The notes under the pieces are model-generated. The model was not told where the DNA came from. It saw only the letters and a list, made by a program, of their open reading frames with translations, and ran no database searches. DNA of 64,000 nucleotides from Flavobacterium sp. MC2016-06 (lineage in GTDB: Bacteria > Bacteroidota > Bacteroidia > Flavobacteriales > Flavobacteriaceae): assembly GCF_009711165.2 (NCBI RefSeq), contig NZ_WMID02000006.1, forward strand, positions 124,001-188,000, read 5' to 3'. This document shows positions 6,531 to 64,000 of this stretch, piece by piece. Position 1 is the first letter of the stretch; every line of letters begins with the position of its first letter. Both the position numbers and the translations under genes were made by a program.

Positions 6531-8051
6531 TTAACTGTTGATCAAATAATCTTTTACGTTTTGTACAAAAGGATACATTACTTGATCTTCTTTAAATATT
6601 GGAATGATATTTCGAACATCGTCGTACCATTTTTTAGTAACCGATGAAATTTTATCTTTCTGCTCTAAATAATCAATCGCCTGAACGATTGTGATCATTT
6701 CGATACTCAATACTTCAAATGCATTTTCGATTACTTTTGATGTAATAACGGCAGCATTTGTTCCCATACTTACAATGTCTTGATTGTCATTGTTGTTCGG
6801 GATACTGTGTACATACATTGGATTAGACAACATTTGGCTTTCGGCAGTTGTAGAAGTTGCAGTAAACTGAACGCCCTGCATTCCGAAGTTAAAACCTAAT
6901 GTTCCTAAATTTACAAATGGAGGAAGTAATTCGTTGATTTTTGAATTCAATAAATAATTCAATTGACGTTCTGCAAGCATCGTTAATTTGGTAATAACGA
7001 TTTTTAATTTGTCCATTTCAAGCGAAATATAATCGCCGTGGAAATTACCTCCGTGATAAACGTGTTTGTTTTTTACGTCGATAATTGGGTTGTCGTTTGC
7101 CGAATTAAATTCGTCTTCCAAAATAGAAGCGACATTATTTATCGTTTCTAAAACAGGCCCTAAAATTTGAGGTACACATCTTAGTGAATAATATTCCTGA
7201 ACTTTTTCTTTGAAGATTTCTTCGGTGTTTTCACCAGAATATAAGTGATCTTCTCTTTTACGGATTAAAGTACTGTCTGAAAGGTTTTTTCTCATTCTTT
7301 CAGCTACTTCCTGTTGTCCTTTATGACGTTTGGTTTGATTTAATTCTAAAGAAAAATGATCGTCGTACGCTTGAACTAATTCGTTTATCGCACAAGAACA
7401 TTTTAATGACCAGTCTAATAATTTATTAGCATGGTGCACATTTACAACGCCAATTCCTGTCATTACAGAAGTTCCGTTGATTAAAGCTAAACCTTCTCTA
7501 ATTTCTACTTGAATCGGTTTTAAACCTTCAATTTCAAAAACTTCTGGAGTTGGTCTTCTTTCTCCTTTATAAAAAACTTCACCTTCGCCAATCAAGACTA
7601 AAGCTAAATGAGATAATTGTACTAAGTCACCACTTGCTCCAACACCTCCGTGCTCAAAGATTAAAGGAGTAATGTCTCTGTTGATAAGCTCTGCCATTAG
7701 GTGAATTACTGAAGGATGTACTCCAGAATTTCCTAACGAAAGTGTATTTAATCGTGCTAAAATTGCTGCTTTTGCACAAACTGGGCTTAATGGTTTTCCT
7801 GTTCCAGAAGAGTGGCTTCTGATTAGGTTGTATTGTAACTGAATTTGGTCTGATTCTTTGATTCGGTATTGTGCCATTGGACCAAAACCAGTATTTACTC
7901 CGTATATAACTTTATTTCCAGAAAATTCTTTCAAGAAATTGAAGCTTTCATTTACTCTATTTAGAACTAGATCACTGATTGTAACTTTGTTATTTCCAAA
8001 GATAATAGACTCAAAGTCGGCTAAACTTAAATATTCATTAATTGTATTCAT
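6531..8051 (-). CDS. Tyrosine ammonia-lyase (flexirubin starter unit)
   Basis: 506 aa, with the MIO-prosthetic-group motif Ala-Ser-Gly at 139-141 (GGVGASGD). The aromatic amino acid lyase core is complete. From memory, its length and most of its sequence match the characterised F. johnsoniae tyrosine ammonia-lyase. The reaction is L-tyrosine to 4-coumarate plus ammonia; 4-coumarate primes the aryl-polyene chain of flexirubin. The SH pair at H80 is shared with histidine ammonia-lyases, so motif alone does not settle the substrate; context and overall similarity favour tyrosine. Divergently transcribed from the halogenase-family gene at 8153. Confidence 0.85.
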   Translation of the reverse strand: MNTINEYLSLADFESIIFGNNKVTISDLVLNRVNESFNFLKEFSGNKVIYGVNTGFGPMAQYRIKESDQIQLQYNLIRSHSSGTGKPLSPVCAKAAILARLNTLSLGNSGVHPSVIHLMAELINRDITPLIFEHGGVGASGDLVQLSHLALVLIGEGEVFYKGERRPTPEVFEIEGLKPIQVEIREGLALINGTSVMTGIGVVNVHHANKLLDWSLKCSCAINELVQAYDDHFSLELNQTKRHKGQQEVAERMRKNLSDSTLIRKREDHLYSGENTEEIFKEKVQEYYSLRCVPQILGPVLETINNVASILEDEFNSANDNPIIDVKNKHVYHGGNFHGDYISLEMDKLKIVITKLTMLAERQLNYLLNSKINELLPPFVNLGTLGFNFGMQGVQFTATSTTAESQMLSNPMYVHSIPNNNDNQDIVSMGTNAAVITSKVIENAFEVLSIEMITIVQAIDYLEQKDKISSVTKKWYDDVRNIIPIFKEDQVMYPFVQNVKDYLINS

Positions 8052-8152
8052 TAAATCGTTTTTGGTTGGGCTAATTTAATTTTATTAATCAAAATAAATG
8101 TAGTTATTTTGATGATGGCAAATGTAAGTTAATTAATGATAACATTTCTATT

Positions 8153-9406
8153 ATGATAAAGGAGTTTGTTGATGTTTTAGTGATTGGTGCAGGACCTTCT
8201 GGATGTGTGTCTGCATCGTTTCTTCATAAAAATAACATTAGGGTAAAGGTTGTAGAAAAAACAAAGTTTCCGAGACTTGTAGTCGGCGAAAGCCTTATTC
8301 CTCGAGTAATGGATCACTTTGCAGAGGCTGAACTTTTTGAGAGTCTTGACGCGATGAATTTTGAAAAAAAGCTTGGCGCACGCTTTATTAGAGGCGAAGA
8401 AATCTGCGTTTTTGATTTTAGTAAAAAATTTGGAGAAGGCTGGGATTGGACTTGGCAGGTGCCTCGTGCGGACTTTGACAACACAATGGCGCAGGAAGTT
8501 ATTAGAAAAGGAATTGATCTGGAATTTGAAACAGAAGTTCTGGAAGTTTCTTTTGAAGGGAAACATTCTACGACTATAGTTAAAGACAAAGACGGAAATT
8601 TAAAAGAAATTCACGCTAAATTTATTATCGATTCAAGTGGCTACGGACGTGTACTGCCAAGACTTTTAGATCTTGATACGCCGTCTAAATTAGATCCGCA
8701 TTCGTCTATTTTTACACATGTAAAAGACATTAACAGACCAGAAGGCGAGGAAGGAACCATGATTTCTTTTGATATTCTAGAAACAGAAGTTTGGTTGTGG
8801 GTAATTCCGTTTTCTAACGGAAATACAAGTTTGGGTGTTGTTGGGCCGACAGATTTTATCAATTCGCTTGCCGAAAATAAAGATACTGCCGAGGCTTTAA
8901 AAAATGCAATTCAGCTTTCAGATTATTATATAAAAAGATTTCAGGGAACTGAGTTTTTGTTTCAGCCAGTCAAGCTGGAAAATTACTCGAGAGCCGTTAA
9001 AAAAATGTACGGAGACGGTTTTGCCTTAACAGGAAATAGTTCTGAATTTTTAGATCCTGTTTTTTCATCTGGCGTTGCTTTTGCGACAGAATCTGGAATG
9101 CTTGCTGCCAAACTATATATTAAGGAGTCGCAAGGAATTGAAGTAGATTGGGAAGTTGAATTTACAGAATATATGAAAAGAGGTATTGCTGTTTTTACCA
9201 CTTACGTGAAAGAATGGTACACTGGAAACCTGCAGACATTATTCTTTTATCAGCCCGAAAATCCCGATGTAAAAGAAAAAATATGTTCGGTTTTGGCAGG
9301 TTATGTCTGGAACGAAGAAAATCCTTTTGTTAAGAAACACGACCACGTGATTCAGAATATGGCTTATTTGCTAGACATGCAAAAACGAGATTTAAATAAA
9401 GAATAG
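8153..9406 (+). CDS. Flavin-dependent halogenase-family oxidoreductase
   Basis: 417 aa. The N-terminal FAD motif is VIGAGPSGCVSASF (residues 10-23), followed by VVGESLIPRV near residue 44. The halogenase signature WxWxIP appears as WLWVIP near residues 216-221. A lysine-rich segment (EKKLGARF, about residue 70) lies where tryptophan halogenases keep their active-site Lys. It could chlorinate or hydroxylate the aryl ring of flexirubin; chlorinated flexirubins are known. Proteins of this family also act as simple monooxygenases or reductases, so halogenation is not certain. It is divergent from the ammonia-lyase gene, with 101 nt between them. Confidence 0.7.
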   Translation: MIKEFVDVLVIGAGPSGCVSASFLHKNNIRVKVVEKTKFPRLVVGESLIPRVMDHFAEAELFESLDAMNFEKKLGARFIRGEEICVFDFSKKFGEGWDWTWQVPRADFDNTMAQEVIRKGIDLEFETEVLEVSFEGKHSTTIVKDKDGNLKEIHAKFIIDSSGYGRVLPRLLDLDTPSKLDPHSSIFTHVKDINRPEGEEGTMISFDILETEVWLWVIPFSNGNTSLGVVGPTDFINSLAENKDTAEALKNAIQLSDYYIKRFQGTEFLFQPVKLENYSRAVKKMYGDGFALTGNSSEFLDPVFSSGVAFATESGMLAAKLYIKESQGIEVDWEVEFTEYMKRGIAVFTTYVKEWYTGNLQTLFFYQPENPDVKEKICSVLAGYVWNEENPFVKKHDHVIQNMAYLLDMQKRDLNKE

Positions 9407-52706: not shown

Positions 52707-52734
52707 AAAACCTCTTCCGTTAAGAAGAGGTTTT
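52707..52734. terminator. Bidirectional terminator beside a tRNA 3' remnant
   Basis: AAAACCTCTTC and GAAGAGGTTTT form an 11-bp stem with a 6-nt loop. It serves the acyltransferase gene on the plus strand and, on the minus strand, directly follows the tRNA-like sequence at 52738-52758, as expected for the original tRNA terminator. Confidence 0.85.
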
Positions 52735-52737
52735 ACG

Positions 52738-52758
52738 TACCCGGAGCCGGAATCAAAT
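52738..52758 (-). other. tRNA 3'-end fragment, presumed attachment site (island left edge)
   Basis: On the minus strand the bases read TTTGATTCCGGCTCCGGGTA: a T-loop, a T-stem 3' strand (CCGGC) and an acceptor 3' strand plus discriminator. The 5' side does not pair, so only the 3' end of a tRNA is present. An integrase gene starts 290 nt away. This is what an integrating element leaves when it recombines into a tRNA gene. Isotype not determinable. Confidence 0.6.
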
Positions 52759-53045: not shown

Positions 53046-54317
53046 ATGGCAGCAGTGAATTATCGAATTAGAAGTAAAGAAAATAAAGATGTCCCTATTA
53101 AAGTTTATCTTTCATTAGGACGCAAAAATTTTATTGAGGTTAATACTGGATTTACAATTAATCCGAAGGACTGGAGTGATAAAACAAAGAGCCCAAAACA
53201 AAATACAGCTGTAAACAAGCAAACTTTTAACAACCTTAAAAAATTAGAATCATTCATTTTCGATTGCCTTAATTCAACTGACAGTTTTTTAATAGACAAA
53301 CTGTGGTTAAAAGCTAAAATAAACGAGTGTTTTAGCCGCATTGAAAAAACAGATATAGGCCTTGTGGCAAACTACATACAAGAAGTAATCGACACTGCAA
53401 ATACTCGAAAAATTAAAATAAAGGGTGGTTACAAATTAGGCTTGTCACAAAGTCGTGTAAATAGTTTCATATCCACGCAAAATGTAATTAAAGAATATCA
53501 GATTAAAATTAAAAAGCAAATTCATTTTATTGATTTTACAGAAACCTGGATTGATAAATTTGGCAGTTGGTTGATTGATGATAAAAAATATGCAATCAAT
53601 ACTGCATCAAAACATTTAGCAAATCTTAAAACGCTATGCATTGAAGCAGAAAGGAAAGAAATTGTTGTTAATCCATTTGCTAAGCATATAATAGTTTTTG
53701 CAGAAGCAGATGAAGATAGATATATACAAACGTTGTCATTTGAGGAATTAGAAGTGATTAGAAAGACAGAATTAACAAGAGAAGCACACAGGAATGCTCG
53801 AAATTGGTTGTTGATTGGTTGCGATTTCGGGCAACGGGGAAATGATTTATTGAATGCATTACCCTCTAATATTCGTCTAAAGGACGGTCGCATTGCTTAC
53901 ATTGACATCTTTCAGCAAAAATCTCAAAAATGGGTAACCGTTCCGATTGTAAAACCGTACGTAATTGATATCGTTCAAAATAATTTCCCTTACAAAATTA
54001 GTGCTCAAAAATTAAATGACTACATCAAGGAAGTTTGTGAAATCGCAGGGATCAACCAAATTTTAGAGGGGAAGATTATGAATGCTGAAACCGGACGCAA
54101 AGAATTGAAATTGCTAGAAAAGTATAAATTAATTACGACTCATTGTTTTAGACGCTCATTTTGTACTAATTACTATAAAAAAATATCAACTCCGACTCTA
54201 ATGGGAATCTCTGGCCATACTAAAGAGTCGATTTTTCTAAAATACATTAATAAACATGAAGATAAAGATGCGAATGCTGATTTATTTATAAAACTTTACG
54301 GTGAAATATATAATTAA
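53046..54317 (+). CDS. int: Tyrosine recombinase / integrase
   Basis: 423 aa. An N-terminal arm-type DNA-binding region (about 1-90), a SAM-like core-binding domain (about 105-205) and a C-terminal catalytic domain. The catalytic set is intact: Arg in GCDFGQRGNDLL, Lys in FQQKSQKWVTVP, His-x-x-Arg in THCFRRSFCTN, His in ISGHTKES and the nucleophile Tyr in IFLKYIN. Bacteroidetes mobile islands use this type. It lies between two different tRNA-like fragments, as integrases of tRNA-targeting elements do. Confidence 0.92.
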   Translation: MAAVNYRIRSKENKDVPIKVYLSLGRKNFIEVNTGFTINPKDWSDKTKSPKQNTAVNKQTFNNLKKLESFIFDCLNSTDSFLIDKLWLKAKINECFSRIEKTDIGLVANYIQEVIDTANTRKIKIKGGYKLGLSQSRVNSFISTQNVIKEYQIKIKKQIHFIDFTETWIDKFGSWLIDDKKYAINTASKHLANLKTLCIEAERKEIVVNPFAKHIIVFAEADEDRYIQTLSFEELEVIRKTELTREAHRNARNWLLIGCDFGQRGNDLLNALPSNIRLKDGRIAYIDIFQQKSQKWVTVPIVKPYVIDIVQNNFPYKISAQKLNDYIKEVCEIAGINQILEGKIMNAETGRKELKLLEKYKLITTHCFRRSFCTNYYKKISTPTLMGISGHTKESIFLKYINKHEDKDANADLFIKLYGEIYN

Positions 54318-54846
54318 AGCTACAAATTGCATTGTAATTAAAACAGTAAACCGTGATTGATAAACGTTCTAGGGTTTTACCTTAAATACCATAACGGGAG
54401 TTGAATCCGTGACCTCAGGGTTATGAAAACTGTTTTATTCAATTCTTAATTTTGTAAAACAATGATTTTAAGGTATTTGTGTTTTTGTTGAAATTTGGTT
54501 TTTTGCTGTTTTTTAGGTTTCCCTCACTGAAGTTCCTCACTTGAGCAATATTTGCTTACTTATGTTTTTCCATATTGCAAGTTAGAAATATAATGGAATA
54601 CATTTTTGTTTGATTGGATAAAATATAATTGTTAATTTTAGTATTTTTTTTATGAAATACTATTGTATTGTTTTGATTGTCAATTATTTACTGATTATGT
54701 TGCTTAATTTTGTAAATTTGTTATAGAGATCATTGATGTACAAAATATAAAATTTTGTAGAATCGTTTAATAATTAAACTTGTGACATGAAGCGTAAACT
54801 TTAATGATATCACTATGTGTTTGTATTAATTTTAATAGAATTTAAA
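54318..54846. other. AT-rich gap after the integrase with tRNA-Met-like remnant
   Basis: 529 nt without a gene. At 54387-54426, on the minus strand, is the 3' half of a CAT-anticodon tRNA: loop TTCATAA, anticodon-stem strand CCCTG, variable AGGTC, T-stem/loop ACGGA-TTCAACT-CCCGT and acceptor strand TATGGTA. The anticodon 5' stem pairs at only 3 of 5 positions, so it is not a working tRNA. The rest is AT-rich sequence in which I see only promoter-like stretches. Confidence 0.5.
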
Positions 54847-55407
54847 ATGAAAAAAAACTTACTAATACTTGCAATTGCTGTTTCTTTAACGGCAATTATG
54901 GCATTTTCAGGTTTAGACAATAAATCTGTTGGAGCTATTGGAGATGTAAAATATTCAGTTTTAATACCTGACAAATTCCGAGAGGAGAACGGGGATGGTT
55001 GGGTGCAAATGGATGATAAGATTCCTTTACAAGGATCAGAATTAAATATTAAACATGGAATAACATCAGTTCCTGATGTAAGAGGTTTGTTTATTCGATC
55101 TCTTAATGGCTCAAGAAATGATGACAAAAGAGATATGTTTAATACAGAAAACAATCGAGATAGATTAGTTTTAGAGTATCAGCCAGATGCTATAAAAAAG
55201 CATACTCATAATTTGTCCAATAAATTAGGTTTTTTTTGCGGTTGGACTACTGGAAATCAATGGTCAGGAGGGCAAAGAGGGAATCCTATGTCTGCAAATG
55301 ATCCCGAATGTTCAATTACAATCTTAGAATCGGGAACAAATCTTTCTGGCGATGAAACAAGACCTAAAAATATTTCACTATATACTTATATTAAAATAAA
55401 TGAATAG
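54847..55407 (+). CDS. Secreted phage-tail-collar-like protein (copy 1)
   Basis: 186 aa from the ATG at 54847, where MKKNLLILAIAVSLTAIMAFSG makes a good signal peptide. The mature part opens GAIGDVKYSVLIPDKFREENGDGW, then IPDVRGLFIRSLN-like collar motif VPDVRGLFIRSLNGSRND, KHTHN and the ending GDETRPKNISLYTYIKINE, all typical of tail-collar/microcystin-dependent-like domains. Such domains normally trimerise at the tip of phage tail fibres; a Sec signal on one is unusual and points to secretion. A paralogue at 58224 is inverted relative to it. Confidence 0.75.
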   Translation: MKKNLLILAIAVSLTAIMAFSGLDNKSVGAIGDVKYSVLIPDKFREENGDGWVQMDDKIPLQGSELNIKHGITSVPDVRGLFIRSLNGSRNDDKRDMFNTENNRDRLVLEYQPDAIKKHTHNLSNKLGFFCGWTTGNQWSGGQRGNPMSANDPECSITILESGTNLSGDETRPKNISLYTYIKINE

Positions 55408-55489: not shown

Positions 55490-58222
55490 TTATTCGTTTT
55501 TTGTTTTTGTGCTATAATAATATTTAAATTTTTCTATGGTTGAAGGAGGTGACAGGTTTTTTGTAAAGGTTAAATCTATCAGCTTTGAATTTATTTTCTG
55601 TCTGCTGTCCATTAAAGTATAAAGTGCTTCGGAATTTATCATCTTATTTTCCAAAATAGTTAAAAATTCGGGACAAAGAATAGTTATTTTTTGTCCTTCC
55701 CTATTAAAGGTTAATTTTAGTTTTTGATTATTGGCATCAATCTCAAACTTAATATCATTTAATGTTATTAGGGAGTTCAAATTTTCCAATGATTTGGTAT
55801 CGACTGATGCTGTATTATAAAGACTTTGAACTTTAAGTTTGTCTGTGAGATCTACGTTTTTATTAATAAGGTAAATAGAAAAGTTTGTTGCTAACAATTT
55901 GTTATTATTTAAAACCTTTATTGCTAGATTTTTTGCTTCCACATCAGTTGAATAATTAAATAAAGTTGCATATATAGGATCAAGCATTAAATTGCCAGAG
56001 AGCATCGATTGTTGAGCAACGGAGTATTGTATTAATTCGAGTATTTTAAGTAAACGGTTTTCCTGAAGTGTTTGATTGTTTTTATTAAGTTTATTATTGA
56101 TTAAATATTCATTTATAGATTGGGGTTTAAAATCAGAACTGTTGCTTTGTACTATGAAAAATGGAGAAAACGTAATTAAATTATTTGTAAATTCATTAAT
56201 TAATTGATAATTGTAATATTCATTAAGTACAATTTCATTATCAATTTCTTTTAAATAGTCCATCTTATTTAAATAATAAAGAGACTTATTGGTATCACTT
56301 GTTAAAGAAAAAGGAAACATTAATGCATAAATTGCTTTTGATGAAGGACTGGGGTAAAATATAGTAAATAATTGATTAGTAGGTTTGTAAATATCGTTTA
56401 TTTCAAAATCAATTACATCAATGTTTTTATAATTTGGGTTTGCTGAAAGGAAAAATGGTGCTTGAATTGATTCGCCAGCTAAAAAATCATTTAATCCATC
56501 TAAGCATTTTTTGCAAACAGGATTAAAACTATTCGTTATATCAGAATATGTAGTAATAGTGTTTATGTTTGTTTCCCAAACTTTTGTTTGGTCTAAGCAA
56601 TTTTTATAGTCTTTGAATATTAGGTAAGAACTATGGTTTAAGAGATAGTCATTCTTTCTATTAATTCGTTCAATTTGATTGCCAGTATATTGAAAGGACA
56701 AAGCCATAGACTTATGCATATCAAGAGTTATATTTGAAAGTGTATCTATCTTAGTTTCAATAATACTCAAGTGATGGTCAATACTATCAAACCTTATTTT
56801 CATATAAGTGTGCATCTGCTTAAGTATTTGACTTTCAGGGCTATCTTGAGGTTTGCTGAATAATCCTCCTAAACCAGTGACAACGCTCATTAAGCCAGAG
56901 GCATCGCCTGCATAAACTCTTGCAGCCCCTGTAAGAACAGAAACGCTATTAATAAATATTCCTACATTTTTAGAATCTTCTCCTTTAAGAATTCCTGTAT
57001 TTACTAAACCACTATAAACTGCCTTTGAATAATTTTCAATATCATTTGAAACGCTAATAATAGTTTCCTTGTTTTTAATTTCTTTTAATTCATTAAGTAA
57101 CTTATTTTTTTTTATTTTATCGTCATTTGTGCTAAAAACATGGTCGAAATCTCCTTTTTCAAGAGCATTTATTTTTTCTGTAGTATTTAGATTCTGAAAC
57201 ACATAACCGCTTAAAATATCAATTTGTAATGAGTTTTGAATGATTAATTTGCTATGTTCATCTTGAATAGTTTTTAGTTGAACAATATCATCTTTAAAAA
57301 GAATCATATTTTTTTCTAAAGTAGAAATTCTACTTTCATTCTCTTTGACTCTAACCTGAATATTATCTAATGTTTTAAATATTCTTTTTTGGCCCTCTGT
57401 TAATTTTACAATTGAATTTCCTAATTCTTTTAATTTCGAGTCTAAATCATCTGTTATTTGTTTTTGAAAATCTTCAATTTTGGAATTTACTTGTAATTTT
57501 ATGTCTTCATATTGCTTAGTTGTTCTTAAATCTAGAAGCTGAATTTGTTCTCTATTTGAAGAGATAAAATCATATGCTCTTTTTGTAAGTTCTTTATTAA
57601 ATATTGCATATTGTTCTCTATTTAATGCAGGAATTTCTCCATGTGCCAAAGCAAACATGTCTTCAAAAGCTTTCTTATCAGTGGAGGTGGTCAGGTCTAT
57701 ACCATTTGTGTATAATAAGTTGATTCGGTCTTTTATAATCTTATCAATTTCGTCTTTATGCAGATCCATTCCTTTTTGTATTTCATTATCTACATAAAGT
57801 TCATAGCCTTGTTCTATCGCAGGCATCAAAAAGTTGGTTAAATGTTTAGTAGGCAAGGCCTGTGCATAATTTCCTAAAACACTCAAGCCATATTTTCCAA
57901 TTTCTTTTCCTGTTTTCCAAAGAAATTCTTGAGATTCATAACGTTTTTTTGTTTTGTCAAGCGTCACATTAAAGTCGTTTATAAATCCATCAATGCTATT
58001 CTGTGTTTGAAGAGGATATTTAATCTGTTGGTTTTTTCTTAGTGATGAAAATCCATTATTATAAGAGGGGCCCTCAAGTTCTATGTTAAGAGAATTAAAG
58101 ACTTCACATGAAGAATTTCTAATATCAAACATTTTGAAATTATTAACTGTACTTTGGGCACAGATAATATTCACGATTAACAAAAGAATAATACTAAAAA
58201 AAAAGTTAGTTATTTTTTTCAT
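55490..58222 (-). CDS. Large secreted coiled-coil protein, unknown
   Basis: 910 aa with a signal peptide (MKKITNFFFSIILLLIVNIICAQ). Not a family I recognise. Visible parts: an N-terminal helical region (about 80-260), a long coiled coil (about 240-350, IEDFQKQITDDLDSKLKEL and later KVRENESRISTLEKN-type heptads), a glycine- and hydrophobic-rich stretch (about 425-465, VGIFINSVSVLTGAARVY and SGLMSVVTGLGGLF), a second coiled coil (about 475-530), and a mixed C-terminal part with few charges. Coiled coils around a hydrophobic hairpin recall alpha-helical pore-forming proteins, but this is only an analogy. It starts 1 nt after the collar copy 2 stop, so the two are one operon. Confidence 0.7.
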   Translation of the reverse strand: MKKITNFFFSIILLLIVNIICAQSTVNNFKMFDIRNSSCEVFNSLNIELEGPSYNNGFSSLRKNQQIKYPLQTQNSIDGFINDFNVTLDKTKKRYESQEFLWKTGKEIGKYGLSVLGNYAQALPTKHLTNFLMPAIEQGYELYVDNEIQKGMDLHKDEIDKIIKDRINLLYTNGIDLTTSTDKKAFEDMFALAHGEIPALNREQYAIFNKELTKRAYDFISSNREQIQLLDLRTTKQYEDIKLQVNSKIEDFQKQITDDLDSKLKELGNSIVKLTEGQKRIFKTLDNIQVRVKENESRISTLEKNMILFKDDIVQLKTIQDEHSKLIIQNSLQIDILSGYVFQNLNTTEKINALEKGDFDHVFSTNDDKIKKNKLLNELKEIKNKETIISVSNDIENYSKAVYSGLVNTGILKGEDSKNVGIFINSVSVLTGAARVYAGDASGLMSVVTGLGGLFSKPQDSPESQILKQMHTYMKIRFDSIDHHLSIIETKIDTLSNITLDMHKSMALSFQYTGNQIERINRKNDYLLNHSSYLIFKDYKNCLDQTKVWETNINTITTYSDITNSFNPVCKKCLDGLNDFLAGESIQAPFFLSANPNYKNIDVIDFEINDIYKPTNQLFTIFYPSPSSKAIYALMFPFSLTSDTNKSLYYLNKMDYLKEIDNEIVLNEYYNYQLINEFTNNLITFSPFFIVQSNSSDFKPQSINEYLINNKLNKNNQTLQENRLLKILELIQYSVAQQSMLSGNLMLDPIYATLFNYSTDVEAKNLAIKVLNNNKLLATNFSIYLINKNVDLTDKLKVQSLYNTASVDTKSLENLNSLITLNDIKFEIDANNQKLKLTFNREGQKITILCPEFLTILENKMINSEALYTLMDSRQKINSKLIDLTFTKNLSPPSTIEKFKYYYSTKTKNE

Positions 58223-58223
58223 T

Positions 58224-58742
58224 TTATTGATTTATTTTCACATAAATATATAAAGCAATGTTTTTAGGACGAGTTTCAACACCGCCAGTTGGTTTAGAAG
58301 TATATTCTTGAGGATCCCAGGCGAATTGAGATGCCGAGCCTTTACCACTGACTTGATTAAATTTTCCAGATGTATAATTATGAGTATGTTCCTTTAACAT
58401 ATCTGTCTGATAGTCCCCTACTAATCTCTCTATATTATTTTCTCTTAAGTATGGATCAGCTTTTTCATCATTCCTTTTCAAATTTAATCCGCGAATGAAA
58501 AGCCCTCTTGCATCCGGAAGTAATGATATACCGTGCTTTGTGTTTAAATCGCAATTTTGTAAAGGAATTTTATCATCCATTAAAACCCAACCGCTACCGT
58601 TTTCTTCTTTAAACTTATCTGGAGATAAAACGGAATATTTTACATCTCCAATAGCTCCAACAACTTTATCGTCAGGCTTAGAAAATGCCATAATTGTTAG
58701 GAATGCCCCAGTAATAATAAATGTTATTAATGTCTGTTTCAT
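58224..58742 (-). CDS. Secreted phage-tail-collar-like protein (copy 2)
   Basis: 172 aa with signal peptide (MKQTLITFIITGAFLTIMAFS). A paralogue of the protein at 54847: shared GAIGDVKYSVL, DKIPLQ, KHGI, PDARGLFIRGLN, EHTHN and the GVETRPKNIALYIYVKINQ ending. The DNA is identical over about 28 bases in the region coding VGAIGDVKYS. The variable middle (about 120-150) differs completely, as expected of a receptor- or partner-facing tip. Overlaps nothing; the 910-aa gene follows at once on the same strand. Confidence 0.75.
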   Translation of the reverse strand: MKQTLITFIITGAFLTIMAFSKPDDKVVGAIGDVKYSVLSPDKFKEENGSGWVLMDDKIPLQNCDLNTKHGISLLPDARGLFIRGLNLKRNDEKADPYLRENNIERLVGDYQTDMLKEHTHNYTSGKFNQVSGKGSASQFAWDPQEYTSKPTGGVETRPKNIALYIYVKINQ

Positions 58743-60746: not shown

Positions 60747-61319
60747 ATGAATGTAGCAGAGATTGTGAACGTACTAATGACAAATGCAAAACCATTTAAT
60801 GAACATTTAGATTTTCCAACTTGCCCAGGAATTTATTCTTTTATTTTGAAGAAAAATTCTAATTTGAAAGAATTTGGTGCATCAGATCAGGTCCTCTATG
60901 TTGGAATTGCAAAAGATAGTTTAAAGAAGAGAGATCTAGGTAATCATTTTAATAATATGGGCACGGGAAGATCAACATTAAGACGATCTCTTGGAGCCAT
61001 ATTAAAAAAGGACTTAGGTTTGACTGCTTTTTCTAGAAATGGAAAAAATAGCAAACGTGAGATAATCAATTACACTTTTGATGTTAATGGCGAAGTCGCA
61101 CTAACTAAATGGATACTTCAAAATCTAAATATTGGATATTGGAAAGATGAGCAATCATTTCCCTATTCAAAATTGAGAGAATTAGAGGAAGAGGTTATAA
61201 AACTTTTGAGACCTACACTTGATTTAGATGCACGAACCAAAAAGTATAACATTCTTGGAGTTAAGTTAGATGAGTTGCGACTAATATGCAGATTAGAAGC
61301 TGAAAATGCCTTTAAATAG
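60747..61319 (+). CDS. GIY-YIG nuclease domain protein
   Basis: 190 aa, one compact domain. GIY is at residues 28-30 (CPGIYSFIL) and the YIG equivalent YVG at 51-53 (LYVGIAKDSL). A basic residue after it (R62 in KKRDLG), the STLRRSLGAIL helix (about 76-86) and the catalytic-Glu helix LEEEVIKLLRPTLD (about 165-178) complete the nuclease fold. It would cut DNA with a divalent metal. First gene of a three-gene run, 18 nt before a DUF262 gene and 5 nt after a TAAATTTG -7-like box. Confidence 0.8.
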   Translation: MNVAEIVNVLMTNAKPFNEHLDFPTCPGIYSFILKKNSNLKEFGASDQVLYVGIAKDSLKKRDLGNHFNNMGTGRSTLRRSLGAILKKDLGLTAFSRNGKNSKREIINYTFDVNGEVALTKWILQNLNIGYWKDEQSFPYSKLRELEEEVIKLLRPTLDLDARTKKYNILGVKLDELRLICRLEAENAFK

Positions 61320-61337
61320 AAAATAAAAACTAATAAC

Positions 61338-62756
61338 TTGGAGAAAATAACTGCTGAAATTAAAAAGGTCAATAAAATATTGAATGACCAGATGGAAATC
61401 CCAAACTACCAAAGACCGTACCGCTGGACAGAAAATAATGTCCGTTTACTGTTAGAAGATATTACAAGTAGTTGGAAAGAGGGTAAAAGTTCGTATAGGA
61501 TTGGTAGTATCATACTTAACAACAATGCTTCAAAACTCAATATTGTAGATGGTCAACAGCGCATCACAAGTATTTTGTTGGTGTTAAAATCGCTGGGGAG
61601 CAAAGTAGGTTCTGGCTTGCGAAATTCGTTGCAATACAAACATCAAGATTCGATAAATGCTATCATTCGCAACAAGAGTTTTATTGACTCTTGGCTGCAA
61701 GAAAATATTGGAAACGATGTAGATGGTTTTGAAAAATATATTTTAGAATACTGTGAGTTTGTAGAAATTAAAGTGAGTAATCTTTCAGAAGCATTCCAAA
61801 TGTTTGATTCGCAAAATGGACGTGGTAAAGAGTTAGAAGCCTATAATCTTTTGAAAGCTTATCATATTCGGGCAATGGAAAGTAATACGTTTGAAGAGAA
61901 GATAGTTTGTGACAAAACTTGGGAAGGTGCAGCCAGATATCAATCGAACAAGGATAGTAATCAGGTCTCAGATTTATTAAGACAGCTTGTTAATGAGCAA
62001 TTATACAGAACTCGATTGTGGAGTCGCAAAGAAACGGCATTGGAGTTTAATAAAAAGCAAATAAAAGAATTTAAAGGAATCACTGTTAATAAAAATCACC
62101 CAATCGATTTTCCTTATCAGAATAGAGAATTGTTACAGTACGTGATGCAGAATTACTTTAAATCACTGGGTGTTGCTGTAAATGGTGTCAAATCAAGATT
62201 CAAACAATTATCGCCTGAGAATATCAGTCCTTTCGCTTTAATCAACCAAAATATCGTCAATGGGAAAGATTTTTTTGATTATACAGAAACCTATGTTGAA
62301 ATTTACAAAAGGCTTTTTAATTCTGAGTATGATGACATGAAAGAATTTAAAAAGTTTATTCAGAAAAATTGCAAATATTCAGGTTCACATCGTGATGGAG
62401 ACAAGTATCTTTTTGAACTTTATAAATCGTTAATTATGTTGATGTTTGATAAGTTTGGAGAAGAAGGTATAGAAAAGTATCATAAAATTTTATACCTATT
62501 AGTGTACAGGCTTCGTCTAGAAAAAGAACAGGTACGTTACACCAGTGTTGCTGATTATCCAATTCAGAACAAAGCCTTTAATATTATTGAAAATGCACAA
62601 AACTATTCTGATTTAACCCAACTGGAAAAAATGGCGAATAAAAAAGTAATTTGTAAAAAGGATGTAGACTTTATAATTAGATATTTTATGGAACAAAAAG
62701 TTCCTTTGAAATCAGGAGATGAAAAGAAAGTGGATTCTACTAAATATAACTTTTGA
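61338..62756 (+). CDS. DUF262 (GmrS-like) protein without a visible HNH domain
   Basis: 472 aa from a TTG start at 61338; the first ATG, at 61392, would remove a helix normally present before the motif, so TTG is preferred. DUF262 hallmarks: IPNYQRPYRW (21-30), DGQQRITSI (71-79) and the FDSQNGRGKELEAYNLLKAY segment (about 155-174). DUF262 proteins (GmrSD, SspE) bind or hydrolyse nucleotides to license an attached HNH/DUF1524 nuclease. Here the C-terminal half is helical and no HNH motif is seen, suggesting that the neighbouring GIY-YIG protein may provide the nuclease. The next gene starts 3 nt after the stop. Confidence 0.85.
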   Translation: MEKITAEIKKVNKILNDQMEIPNYQRPYRWTENNVRLLLEDITSSWKEGKSSYRIGSIILNNNASKLNIVDGQQRITSILLVLKSLGSKVGSGLRNSLQYKHQDSINAIIRNKSFIDSWLQENIGNDVDGFEKYILEYCEFVEIKVSNLSEAFQMFDSQNGRGKELEAYNLLKAYHIRAMESNTFEEKIVCDKTWEGAARYQSNKDSNQVSDLLRQLVNEQLYRTRLWSRKETALEFNKKQIKEFKGITVNKNHPIDFPYQNRELLQYVMQNYFKSLGVAVNGVKSRFKQLSPENISPFALINQNIVNGKDFFDYTETYVEIYKRLFNSEYDDMKEFKKFIQKNCKYSGSHRDGDKYLFELYKSLIMLMFDKFGEEGIEKYHKILYLLVYRLRLEKEQVRYTSVADYPIQNKAFNIIENAQNYSDLTQLEKMANKKVICKKDVDFIIRYFMEQKVPLKSGDEKKVDSTKYNF

Positions 62757-62758
62757 TA

Positions 62759-64000
62759 ATGGAAGTACAGAATTTAAATAAAACCTTACAGGAAATATTT
62801 CAAAGCAAATATATAGTTCCTCTTTATCAGAGAAATTATGCTTGGGCACAAGACGAAATAGAAAATTTACTTCAGGATTTATATGAGAATTTTAAAAAGT
62901 CTGAGACAAATACAACTTTAAATTACTTCATAGGTAGTTTGGTCGTTTTGAAAAGAAAAGACGGACTGTATGAAGTGATTGATGGACAACAGAGATTAAC
63001 GACATTGTCACTTTTACTAAAAATATTGGAACAGGTAAAAGAACCAAAACTATTTTATGAATCGAGACCCGAAGTAGAAGCATTTTTCGATTCTTACTAT
63101 AGAAATGGGAGCACAAAAGATGTTACTTTCAATTATAAGGTTTCTCATCTGATTAATGCGGTAGATATGCTAAAACAATCTGTGGTAAATCCGGATGAAA
63201 TTAAAGAAAAAAGGCTCTTTGATATTGAAGATTTTGATAGATTTAAAAAGTTTGTTTTTGAGAACGTAGTTCTTGTTCGTGTAGAAATTCCTCAGGATAC
63301 AGATGTTGCCAATTATTTTGAAATAATGAATAATAGAGGTGAGCAATTGCAAAAACACGAAATTCTGAAATCTTATCTAATAGAAACCTTGAAAGATAAG
63401 GATGATAATTATTTTGAGAAACAACAAGATGAGTTTTCAAAAATATGGGATGCTTGTTCACAGATGGATACACATATTCAAAAACTTTTTTCGGCTGAAG
63501 ACAGGCGGAAATATTTTGGAGACAACTATGACGAGATAAATCAGATAGATTTTGAAAAAGAAGAAGCACAAGTTAGAAGCGGATTTTCTATCAATAAAGC
63601 ATTGAGAAATCTAGGTAAAAAAGTCGATTCGTTTCAAATTGATGATATAGATGATGCAGGCAAAGACCAATCAATTATTGACTTTCCCAACTTTTTGATC
63701 CACATTTTTAAAGTAAAGTATCAAACCTATGTTGATAATGGGAATAAAATTGAGATTCCTTTGAATGAGAAAGATTTGATTGCTGTATATGAAAATTTAA
63801 AAAACATAATCGATGCCAAAGATTTTATAAATGACCTACTTTATTATCGAACTGTTTTTGATAGATTTATTGTAAAAGCAACGGATGATGAAAAGGATGA
63901 AGAAAGTTATAAATGGACATTGAAAAAGCCTTATCGATATGATTATTCTAAAGCAGAGAATAAAATTTCCACAAGTTTAAAATATAAAAATTCTTTTGAT
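62759..64000 (+). CDS. Second DUF262 protein, truncated by the window edge
   Basis: At least 414 codons; the reading frame stays open to the end. DUF262 motifs: VPLYQRNYAW (20-29), IDGQQRLTTLSLL (74-86) and NYFEIMNNRGEQLQKHEILKSYLI (about 182-205). It is clearly diverged from the first DUF262 protein, so the pair is not a recent duplication. Any DUF1524/HNH domain would lie after residue 414, outside the window. Two DUF262 genes in tandem after a nuclease gene suggest subunits of one complex. Confidence 0.87.
   Translation, partial: MEVQNLNKTLQEIFQSKYIVPLYQRNYAWAQDEIENLLQDLYENFKKSETNTTLNYFIGSLVVLKRKDGLYEVIDGQQRLTTLSLLLKILEQVKEPKLFYESRPEVEAFFDSYYRNGSTKDVTFNYKVSHLINAVDMLKQSVVNPDEIKEKRLFDIEDFDRFKKFVFENVVLVRVEIPQDTDVANYFEIMNNRGEQLQKHEILKSYLIETLKDKDDNYFEKQQDEFSKIWDACSQMDTHIQKLFSAEDRRKYFGDNYDEINQIDFEKEEAQVRSGFSINKALRNLGKKVDSFQIDDIDDAGKDQSIIDFPNFLIHIFKVKYQTYVDNGNKIEIPLNEKDLIAVYENLKNIIDAKDFINDLLYYRTVFDRFIVKATDDEKDEESYKWTLKKPYRYDYSKAENKISTSLKYKNSFD

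What the first reader, a model, noticed from the sequence alone, without database searches (positions are those of the whole stretch)
60747..64000. Candidate defence operon: GIY-YIG nuclease plus two different DUF262 proteins
Three co-directional genes with gaps of 18 and 2 nt lie in a mobile island. DUF262 is known in GmrSD type IV restriction and SspE phage defence, where it is fused to an HNH/DUF1524 nuclease. Here the first DUF262 protein has no visible HNH motif and is preceded by a separate GIY-YIG nuclease, and a second, diverged DUF262 protein follows. A split system in which nucleotide-dependent sensors control a nuclease in trans would be a variant I cannot match to a named system.
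Basis: partly seen in the sequence, partly recalled or inferred. Interest (0 to 1): 0.75.

Follow-up and report, generated by a model that had tools for sequence, protein, structure and literature searches.

The report
TgvAB-like restriction operon with extra nuclease
Three adjacent genes on a mobile island look like a known two-protein bacterial defence that cuts phage DNA carrying unusual modifications, here preceded by an additional DNA-cutting enzyme whose link to it is rare and unproven.

Summary
In detail: three co-directional genes (gaps 18 and 2 nt) on a ~33.6-kb island at a tRNA-Leu 3' end. The window cuts the third gene short. Read in the whole genome, the second DUF262 protein (615 aa) ends in an HNH-type (GmrSD_C) region with an invariant EHH...GN...N signature. 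The first has no HNH and ends in DUF7834. They form a conserved pair: the genes touch or overlap in 25 of 27 loci. The pair matches the published TgvAB system, a two-protein GmrSD-like type IV restriction system, in gene order, domains and catalytic motifs. So this is not an unnamed split system. The GIY-YIG gene is the unusual part. It keeps its catalytic residues, but its four closest relatives with known context sit in type III R-M loci before a Tiamat-like gene, a slot that two of DUF262a's three nearest relatives occupy in other genomes. A GIY-YIG gene directly before a DUF262 gene was seen in 3 of 30 tabulated loci. Best reading: a TgvAB-type modification-dependent restriction module with an optional accessory nuclease, a new variant of a known kind.

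The parts
52733..52751 (.). left end of the island: 19-bp direct repeat of the 3' end of a tRNA-Leu gene (other copy at L005:10342-10360, outside the window)
   Evidence: tRNA by Rfam RF00005, 51.5 bits, and ARAGORN
53046..54317 (+). tyrosine recombinase (island integrase)
   Evidence: Pfam Phage_int_SAM_5 40.5 bits, Phage_integrase 27.6 bits
60747..61319 (+). GIY-YIG nuclease, GIY_YIG_2 family, 190 aa; G28-I-Y30, Y51-V-G53, R62, H67, E147, N168
   Evidence: PF20815 72.8 bits; R62, H67 and E147 in 30 of 30 aligned sequences, N168 in 29 of 30
61338..62756 (+). TgvA-like protein: DUF262 (ParB/Srx-type NTPase) + DUF7834, 472 aa, no HNH; QR 25-26, DGQQR 71-75, FxxxN 156-160
   Evidence: PF03235 and PF25202 over cutoffs; motif residues invariant in 37 of 37 aligned sequences
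62753..64000 (+). TgvB-like protein, N-terminal 416 of 615 aa: DUF262, QR 26-27, DGQQR 77-81, FxxxN 189-193. The gene continues to the equivalent of 64600; its HNH-type (DUF1524/GmrSD_C) region lies outside the window

Best explanation
A TgvAB-type, two-protein, GmrSD-like type IV restriction module with a GIY-YIG nuclease gene in front, carried on a tRNA-Leu genomic island. Proposed working: DUF262a (TgvA-like) and DUF262b (TgvB-like) act as NTP-binding ParB/Srx-type sensors of modified bases in incoming phage DNA, jointly gating the HNH-type nuclease at the C-terminus of DUF262b, which cuts or nicks that DNA. The GIY-YIG protein is an accessory nuclease from the same operon-like cluster. It may add a second cut or act alone, and is not needed for the core activity. 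Shown here: gene order, domains, catalytic residues, conservation of the pair, island context. Inferred from the published TgvAB experiments: dependence on both proteins, dependence on the DGQQR motifs, targeting of hypermodified cytosines. Inferred only from position: co-expression with, and any role of, the GIY-YIG protein.
Against: No V. cholerae TgvA/TgvB sequence was compared directly. No NCBIfam model matches. PADLOC's best hits are HEC-06, Orf5 and SspE, none named TgvAB in the rows shown. R-M labels of relatives rest on weak BLAST to one plasmid's HsdR/M (39-82 bits), and the HsdS calls partly on reading by eye. The GIY-YIG link is rare: none of the 15 genomes with DUF262a in the family of G532 is among the 7 with GIY-YIG. 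The window's GIY-YIG branch is about five times longer than its sister's (0.45 against 0.094), so it may be drifting.
Confidence: 0.8

Rival explanations
1. TgvAB-like pair plus an unrelated neighbour: the GIY-YIG gene is a leftover from a type III R-M accessory slot that travelled with the pair and has no part in its action. (This and the next rival differ from the best reading only in the role of the GIY-YIG gene.)
For: The four closest GIY-YIG relatives with known context (L006, L007, L008, L163) all lie between mod and a Tiamat-like gene in type III loci. Two of DUF262a's three nearest relatives with context (L139, L140) lie in the same slot of the same type III locus without GIY-YIG. Upstream of DUF262a the gene differs from locus to locus. 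Long branch of the window's GIY-YIG.
Against: Catalytic residues kept. A GIY-YIG gene directly before DUF262 genes also occurs in L164 and L166, in a different GIY-YIG subgroup and with different DUF262 types. Co-location on contigs of Chryseobacterium.
Confidence: 0.5
2. Three-protein system: the GIY-YIG protein is a working effector gated by the DUF262 NTPases.
For: Operon-like spacing; three GIY-YIG/DUF262 neighbourhoods (window, L164, L166), although L164's DUF262 gene is broken; other putative nucleases in the same upstream place: HNH-like 260/283-aa proteins in L140 and L151 (31.6% identity, E 5e-35), PD-(D/E)xK-like 192/197-aa proteins in L041 and L042 (both are my motif readings, Pfam gave no nuclease family), and an annotated PD-(D/E)XK protein in L120.
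Against: 26 of 27 TgvAB-like loci have no GIY-YIG gene upstream, and TgvAB protects without one (PMC11411939).
Confidence: 0.3
3. Self-mark-sensing effector of the SspE/DndI kind, gated by a host DNA modification (phosphorothioate or methylation) rather than by phage modification.
For: SspE and DndI are the best fold matches of DUF262a and among the nearest solved sequences; relatives sit inside R-M loci next to methyltransferases; a DndB/DpdB-like gene precedes the pair in L139; a methylase-like ORF (by eye) lies at the far end of the island.
Against: No res or Snf2-like partner of the type III locus was found in this genome (empty answers without a positive control), and no modification gene is adjacent here. 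tgvAB alone protects in E. coli, though 10- to 100-fold less than the whole five-gene cluster against several phages (PMC11411939).
Confidence: 0.12

Closest known systems
[quoted passage not shown] cholerae VPI-2; PMC11411939: abstract, passages and section 9 seen)
   Same: Two adjacent genes in the same order; A = DUF262 without nuclease domain, B = DUF262 + DUF1524-type HNH; QR, DGQQR, FxxxN and His-Me motifs; relatives embedded in type I R-M between hsdS and hsdR
   Different: Here not inside an R-M operon; GIY-YIG gene directly upstream; 29-33% identity to the best plasmid relatives in other phyla
GrwAB (V. cholerae WASA VSP-II; PMC12137116 and PMC12409362, passages seen)
   Same: Two-protein GmrSD-like system needing two DUF262 proteins, one with DUF1524
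   Different: Order reversed and partner with a long C-terminus; the L166 pair (597 + 730 aa) looks like this one, the window's pair does not
SspE / DndI (PMC11662687, passages seen)
   Same: Best fold matches of DUF262a; DUF262 NTPase controlling an HNH nuclease
   Different: Single protein; sense phosphorothioate in host DNA
GmrSD / BrxU (PMC4619093 and PMC10952713, passages seen)
   Same: DUF262 + DUF1524, type IV restriction
   Different: Mostly single proteins; no DUF262 partner needed
Type III R-M locus with GIY-YIG + TmtA (Tiamat; the name's meaning is recalled)
   Same: Same GIY-YIG family, 62-67% identity for L006-L008
   Different: GIY-YIG followed by an HSP90/sacsin-like TmtA-type gene instead of DUF262 genes

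Membership tests
TgvAB | two adjacent co-directional genes, A then B | tested here: met
   window and 24 further loci of 27 with a gap of -25 to +3 nt
TgvAB | A: N-terminal DUF262, no DUF1524 | tested here: met
   PF03235 + PF25202, no GmrSD_C match; C-terminus mostly helical in the model
TgvAB | B: N-terminal DUF262 and C-terminal DUF1524/His-Me nuclease | tested here: met
   PF03235 over cutoff; PF07510 19.3 bits against cutoff 23 in the window's own protein, over cutoff in 5 of 5 relatives scanned and recorded for 101 of 120; EHH/GN/N invariant
[quoted passage not shown]
   motifs as listed in PMC11411939 section 9
TgvAB | sequence relationship to VC1767/VC1766 | not tested
   no V. cholerae sequence was fetched; indirect: the same families occur in the M-S-A-B-R arrangement
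TgvAB | restriction of phages with glucosylated or arabinosylated hydroxymethylcytosine; both proteins required | not testable with these tools
   needs phage assays
GmrSD / BrxU (single protein) | one protein sufficient | not testable with these tools
   the pair is conserved in 25 of 27 loci, which argues against it
GrwAB | nuclease-bearing DUF262 protein first, partner with long extra C-terminus second | tested here: not met
   nuclease-bearing protein is second, partner is 472 aa
SspE / DndI | coupled to phosphorothioate modification genes | not tested
   no dnd/ssp search of the genome was made; none was recognised by eye among the island ORFs listed
GIY-YIG nuclease superfamily | GIY...YxG, R, H, E, N catalytic set | tested here: met
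   (residue roles recalled)
   1 of 27 pair loci; 3 of 30 tabulated GIY-YIG loci have any DUF262 gene directly downstream

The most novel reading that the evidence does not exclude
Two-protein GmrSD-like systems (TgvAB-like and GrwAB-like) have an exchangeable third gene directly in front, filled by small nucleases of unrelated folds (GIY-YIG in the window and L166, HNH-like in L140 and L151, PD-(D/E)xK-like in L041 and L042), so that two DUF262 NTPases gate both a built-in HNH nuclease and a separate one. In Bacteroidota this cassette shares a swappable slot in type III R-M loci with Tiamat.
Probability: 0.27. Interest if true: 0.65.

Novelty: new variant of a known kind. Interest (0 to 1): 0.4.

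Why it matters
It places an apparently unnamed DUF262/DUF262 operon with a characterised phage-defence family; the TgvAB paper already reports 1,341 tgvAB homologues, Bacteroides fragilis among them, and here relatives turn up in type III R-M loci and on many Klebsiella plasmids as well. If the extra nuclease proves functional, it would bear on the question left open in the TgvAB paper of why TgvB alone is not enough, by showing DUF262 proteins as a shared gate for several effectors.

Tried and rejected
Rejected: the first DUF262 protein as a degenerate HNH protein (no DUF1524 match; the profile match to DUF262b stops after the DUF262 domain). Rejected: the 457-aa gene after DUF262b as a fourth member (243-nt gap; no alignment to the 442-aa gene that follows the pair in Vibrio L121; no family). 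Rejected: remains of the type III locus beside the triplet (tblastn of genes from L006-L008 against the window, L004 and L005 found only the GIY-YIG gene). The viral-contig scan for GIY-YIG confirmed no relative; the phage collection held 2 partial DUF262a matches. PF25202 also hit one weak single DUF262 protein (L028, below cutoff), left out of the pair count. The GIY-YIG protein has one weak PADLOC match (PDC-M57B, 14.6 bits), not pursued. Two short GIY-YIG loci, L034 and L036, were left out of the 30 tabulated; the same profiles show no DUF262 gene in them. The contig-length comparison used 120 DUF262a, 99 of 120 DUF262b and 83 of 85 GIY-YIG rows; equal lengths are a proxy, and the C. gambrini contig is a whole chromosome. 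A first, poorer model of DUF262a (pTM 0.40; Foldseek E 8e-6 to 1e-4 to DndI and SspE but TM-scores of 0.30 or less) was replaced by the second; a Foldseek search with the second did not run, only the second look by VIA-align. In print: no paper holds DUF7834. Papers holding DUF262, GIY-YIG and defense (3) or GmrSD and GIY-YIG (7) were seen as listings, with passages read in two (PMC4619093, PMC10952713); no GIY-YIG/DUF262-pair operon appears in those passages. PMC10853773 (passages) reports exchangeable endoDNases, GIY-YIG-type and HNH among them, beside Dnd modification genes, a parallel in another system. This covers only the held open-access library.
Full report
Check of the observation. 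The window is C6:124001-188000 of a 6.17-Mb, 121-contig genome and cuts the third gene; read on, it ends at L004:8600 and encodes 615 aa. Pfam: the 190-aa protein is GIY_YIG_2 (PF20815, 72.8 bits); the 472-aa protein is GmrSD_N/DUF262 (110 bits) plus DUF7834 (161.3 bits); the third starts with GmrSD_N (117.9 bits). The full third protein has a sub-threshold GmrSD_C match at its C-terminus (19.3 against 23 bits); PF07510 is recorded for 101 of the 120 listed relatives but not for the six closest. In 25 aligned sequences E519, H520, H521, G535, N536 and N545 are invariant. The two DUF262 profiles align only over the N-terminal domain. In the GIY-YIG family R62, H67 and E147 are identical in 30 of 30 aligned rows, N168 in 29 of 30, and the GIY and YxG positions are kept in all 29 rows that cover them, apart from I/V/L exchanges at the middle position.

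Island. A 19-bp direct repeat lies at 52733-52751 and at L005:10342-10360. The second copy overlaps the 3' end of a tRNA-Leu(CAA) gene on the minus strand (Rfam tRNA 51.5 bits; ARAGORN). The tyrosine integrase at 53046 lies just inside. The island, about 33.6 kb, also holds an LRR-Roc-COR protein and an Avs3a-like protein (PADLOC 1547.9 bits; NCBIfam 1665.4 bits, below its cutoff of 2800). One relative's locus (L006, Flavobacterium sp. IB48) reappears as a 'same genus' hit at the same contig position (L171), so the genus is most likely Flavobacterium (inference).

The pair. In 27 loci examined (the window, 19 genome stretches, 2 viral contigs, 5 plasmid stretches), DUF262b starts between 25 nt before and 3 nt after the end of DUF262a in 25, by longest-ORF starts. 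In L143 the A gene is broken, and in L122 the B gene is in pieces. The 19 genome stretches are the 15 hits and 4 of the 5 other hits (the weak L028 left out); the two viral contigs were taken from 79 loci because both genes had been seen there; the 5 plasmid stretches are 5 of the 15 best rows. Six more plasmid regions show the second DUF262 gene next in 5 of 6; in L177 an IS element lies between. Five A/B pairs tested, from type I, type III-like and plasmid settings, all have PF03235+PF25202 followed by PF03235+PF07510, over cutoff. In 37 aligned A proteins QR 25-26, DGQQR 71-75, and F156, Q159 and N160 are invariant. Distribution: PF25202 in 6 of 296 genomes of the phylum, 5 over cutoff; DUF262a at E 1e-30 or better in 15 of 320 genomes of the family of G532 and 4 of 395 of the order, where only the top candidates of the first look were scored; tblastn matches in 1,007 of 72,556 plasmid records, 914 of them Klebsiella, 870 covering at least 80% of the query.

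What it is. Vizzarro et al. (PMC11411939; abstract, passages and section 9 seen) describe TgvAB: two genes between hsdS and hsdR, TgvA with DUF262, TgvB with DUF262 and DUF1524, both needed, with DGQQR of both and H571/N602 of TgvB essential, acting on phages with hypermodified cytosines. The pair here meets every sequence-level feature that I tested. The M-S-A-B-R order occurs in L145 and L156, and with extra genes inside in L151, L154 and L155; these labels rest on weak BLAST matches to one plasmid's HsdR and HsdM, and the HsdS calls partly on reading by eye (one search finds HsdS similarity for L145 and L151 only). I did not compare the pair with the V. cholerae proteins themselves.

The GIY-YIG gene. 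Its four closest relatives with context (L006, L007, L008, L163; 293-300 bits) all lie in one arrangement: res, mod, GIY-YIG, a TmtA-type gene, an HKD/Snf2-type helicase, DUF4391; L008 has two more genes, one DpdB-like, after mod. The TmtA model was run on L006's protein only (737.9 bits), the others are similar to it by BLAST; in L163 that gene is in two pieces. Of the three closest DUF262a relatives with context, L139 and L140 occupy the same slot of the same locus type: res, mod, a hypothetical gene, a DndB/DpdB-like gene, [HNH-like gene in L140], A, B, the same helicase, then a DUF4391 gene (by eye in L140) (families run on L139). The third, L141, is outside such a locus. So both halves of the triplet have close relatives in one exchangeable slot of a type III R-M locus. 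No res, Snf2-like or TmtA relative was found in the window's own genome (empty answers without a positive control).

How regular is the triplet? Of 30 GIY-YIG loci tabulated (31 taken, L022 without a called gene; several are short), a DUF262 gene is directly downstream in 3: the window, L164 (one DUF262 gene, broken) and L166 (two DUF262 genes, 597 aa with an HNH-like C-terminus by eye and 730 aa, the GrwAB order); L008 has a weak DUF262 match four genes downstream. Two further short loci, L034 and L036, show none. None of the 17 GIY-YIG loci from the genome collection has the TgvAB-like pair in its held flank. In the family of G532 the 7 genomes with GIY-YIG and the 15 with DUF262a do not overlap. 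GIY-YIG matches occur in 8 of 395 genomes of the order and 5 of 269 of the genus, the window's own included in both. In the protein database three longest-contig lengths are shared by relatives of all three proteins, two of them with matching organism names; adjacency could not be read. The GIY-YIG tree does not group TgvAB-sharing apart from TmtA-linked members (4 changes, shuffled mean 3.3; the sharing label rests on the contig-length proxy), as expected of an accessory shuffled between partners.

The place directly before DUF262a. It holds HsdS-like proteins in several type I loci, and elsewhere a GIY-YIG protein (window), HNH-like proteins (L140 and L151, 31.6% identical, E 5e-35, in a type III and a type I locus), a protein annotated as PD-(D/E)XK (L120), and 192/197-aa proteins with a D...ExK pattern (L041, L042); many loci have something else or nothing there. 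Pfam recognises no nuclease in either small group (run on L140, L151 and L041), so their nuclease nature is my reading of motifs. Exchangeable endoDNases beside Dnd modification genes are described in print (PMC10853773, passages).

Mechanism. Core: DUF262 domains of A and B bind NTP through DGQQR, sense base modification, and license the HNH region of B. These steps are supported for TgvAB or its kin in print and inferred here. The GIY-YIG protein is probably an active nuclease; whether it works with the pair is open. I put 0.8 on the TgvAB-type core, about 0.5 on the GIY-YIG gene being a mere fellow traveller and about 0.3 on its being a working third part.

Noticed in passing
window 52733 to L005:10360: Island of about 33.6 kb at a tRNA-Leu(CAA) 3' end, with a 19-bp direct repeat and a tyrosine integrase.
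   Followed up: yes
L004:13505-19780: Avs3a-like STAND protein of 2091 aa in the same island (PADLOC 1547.9 bits; below the NCBIfam equivalog cutoff).
   Followed up: partly
L004:10384-13083: LRR-Roc-COR protein of 899 aa between the triplet and the Avs3a-like gene.
   Followed up: no
L004:8844-10217: 457-aa protein without any family match, possibly phosphoribosyltransferase-like by eye, 243 nt after the pair.
   Followed up: partly
L006, L007, L008, L163, L139, L140: Type III R-M locus with a swappable slot between mod and an HKD/Snf2 helicase: GIY-YIG + TmtA-like, or DpdB-like + TgvAB-like pair.
   Followed up: yes
L140:10982-11764 and L151:8634-9485: Related HNH-like (by eye) 260/283-aa proteins directly before the TgvA-like gene in a type III and a type I locus; no nuclease family in Pfam.
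   Followed up: partly
L041:7375-7950 and L042:7360-7953: IMG/VR contigs with recombinase-like genes (by eye) carry a TgvAB-like pair preceded by a PD-(D/E)xK-like 192/197-aa protein.
   Followed up: partly
L175, L176: TgvAB-like pairs at about 27-29% identity on conjugative IncFIB/IncFII Klebsiella plasmids; 914 Klebsiella plasmid records match DUF262a.
   Followed up: partly
L166:5344-10390: Type III-like locus in which a GIY-YIG gene is followed by a GrwAB-like pair (597 + 730 aa).
   Followed up: partly
window 54817-55407, 55490-58222, 58224-58742: Two related 196/172-aa secreted-looking proteins flank a 910-aa coiled-coil secreted-looking protein without a family over cutoff; a 2-kb stretch without long ORFs follows, before the triplet.
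   Followed up: no
L005:5355-6953 and 6957-8879: At the far end of the island, a phage Gp37-like/ParB-like ORF and a methylase-like ORF with an NPPY motif (assignments by eye, no family search).
   Followed up: no
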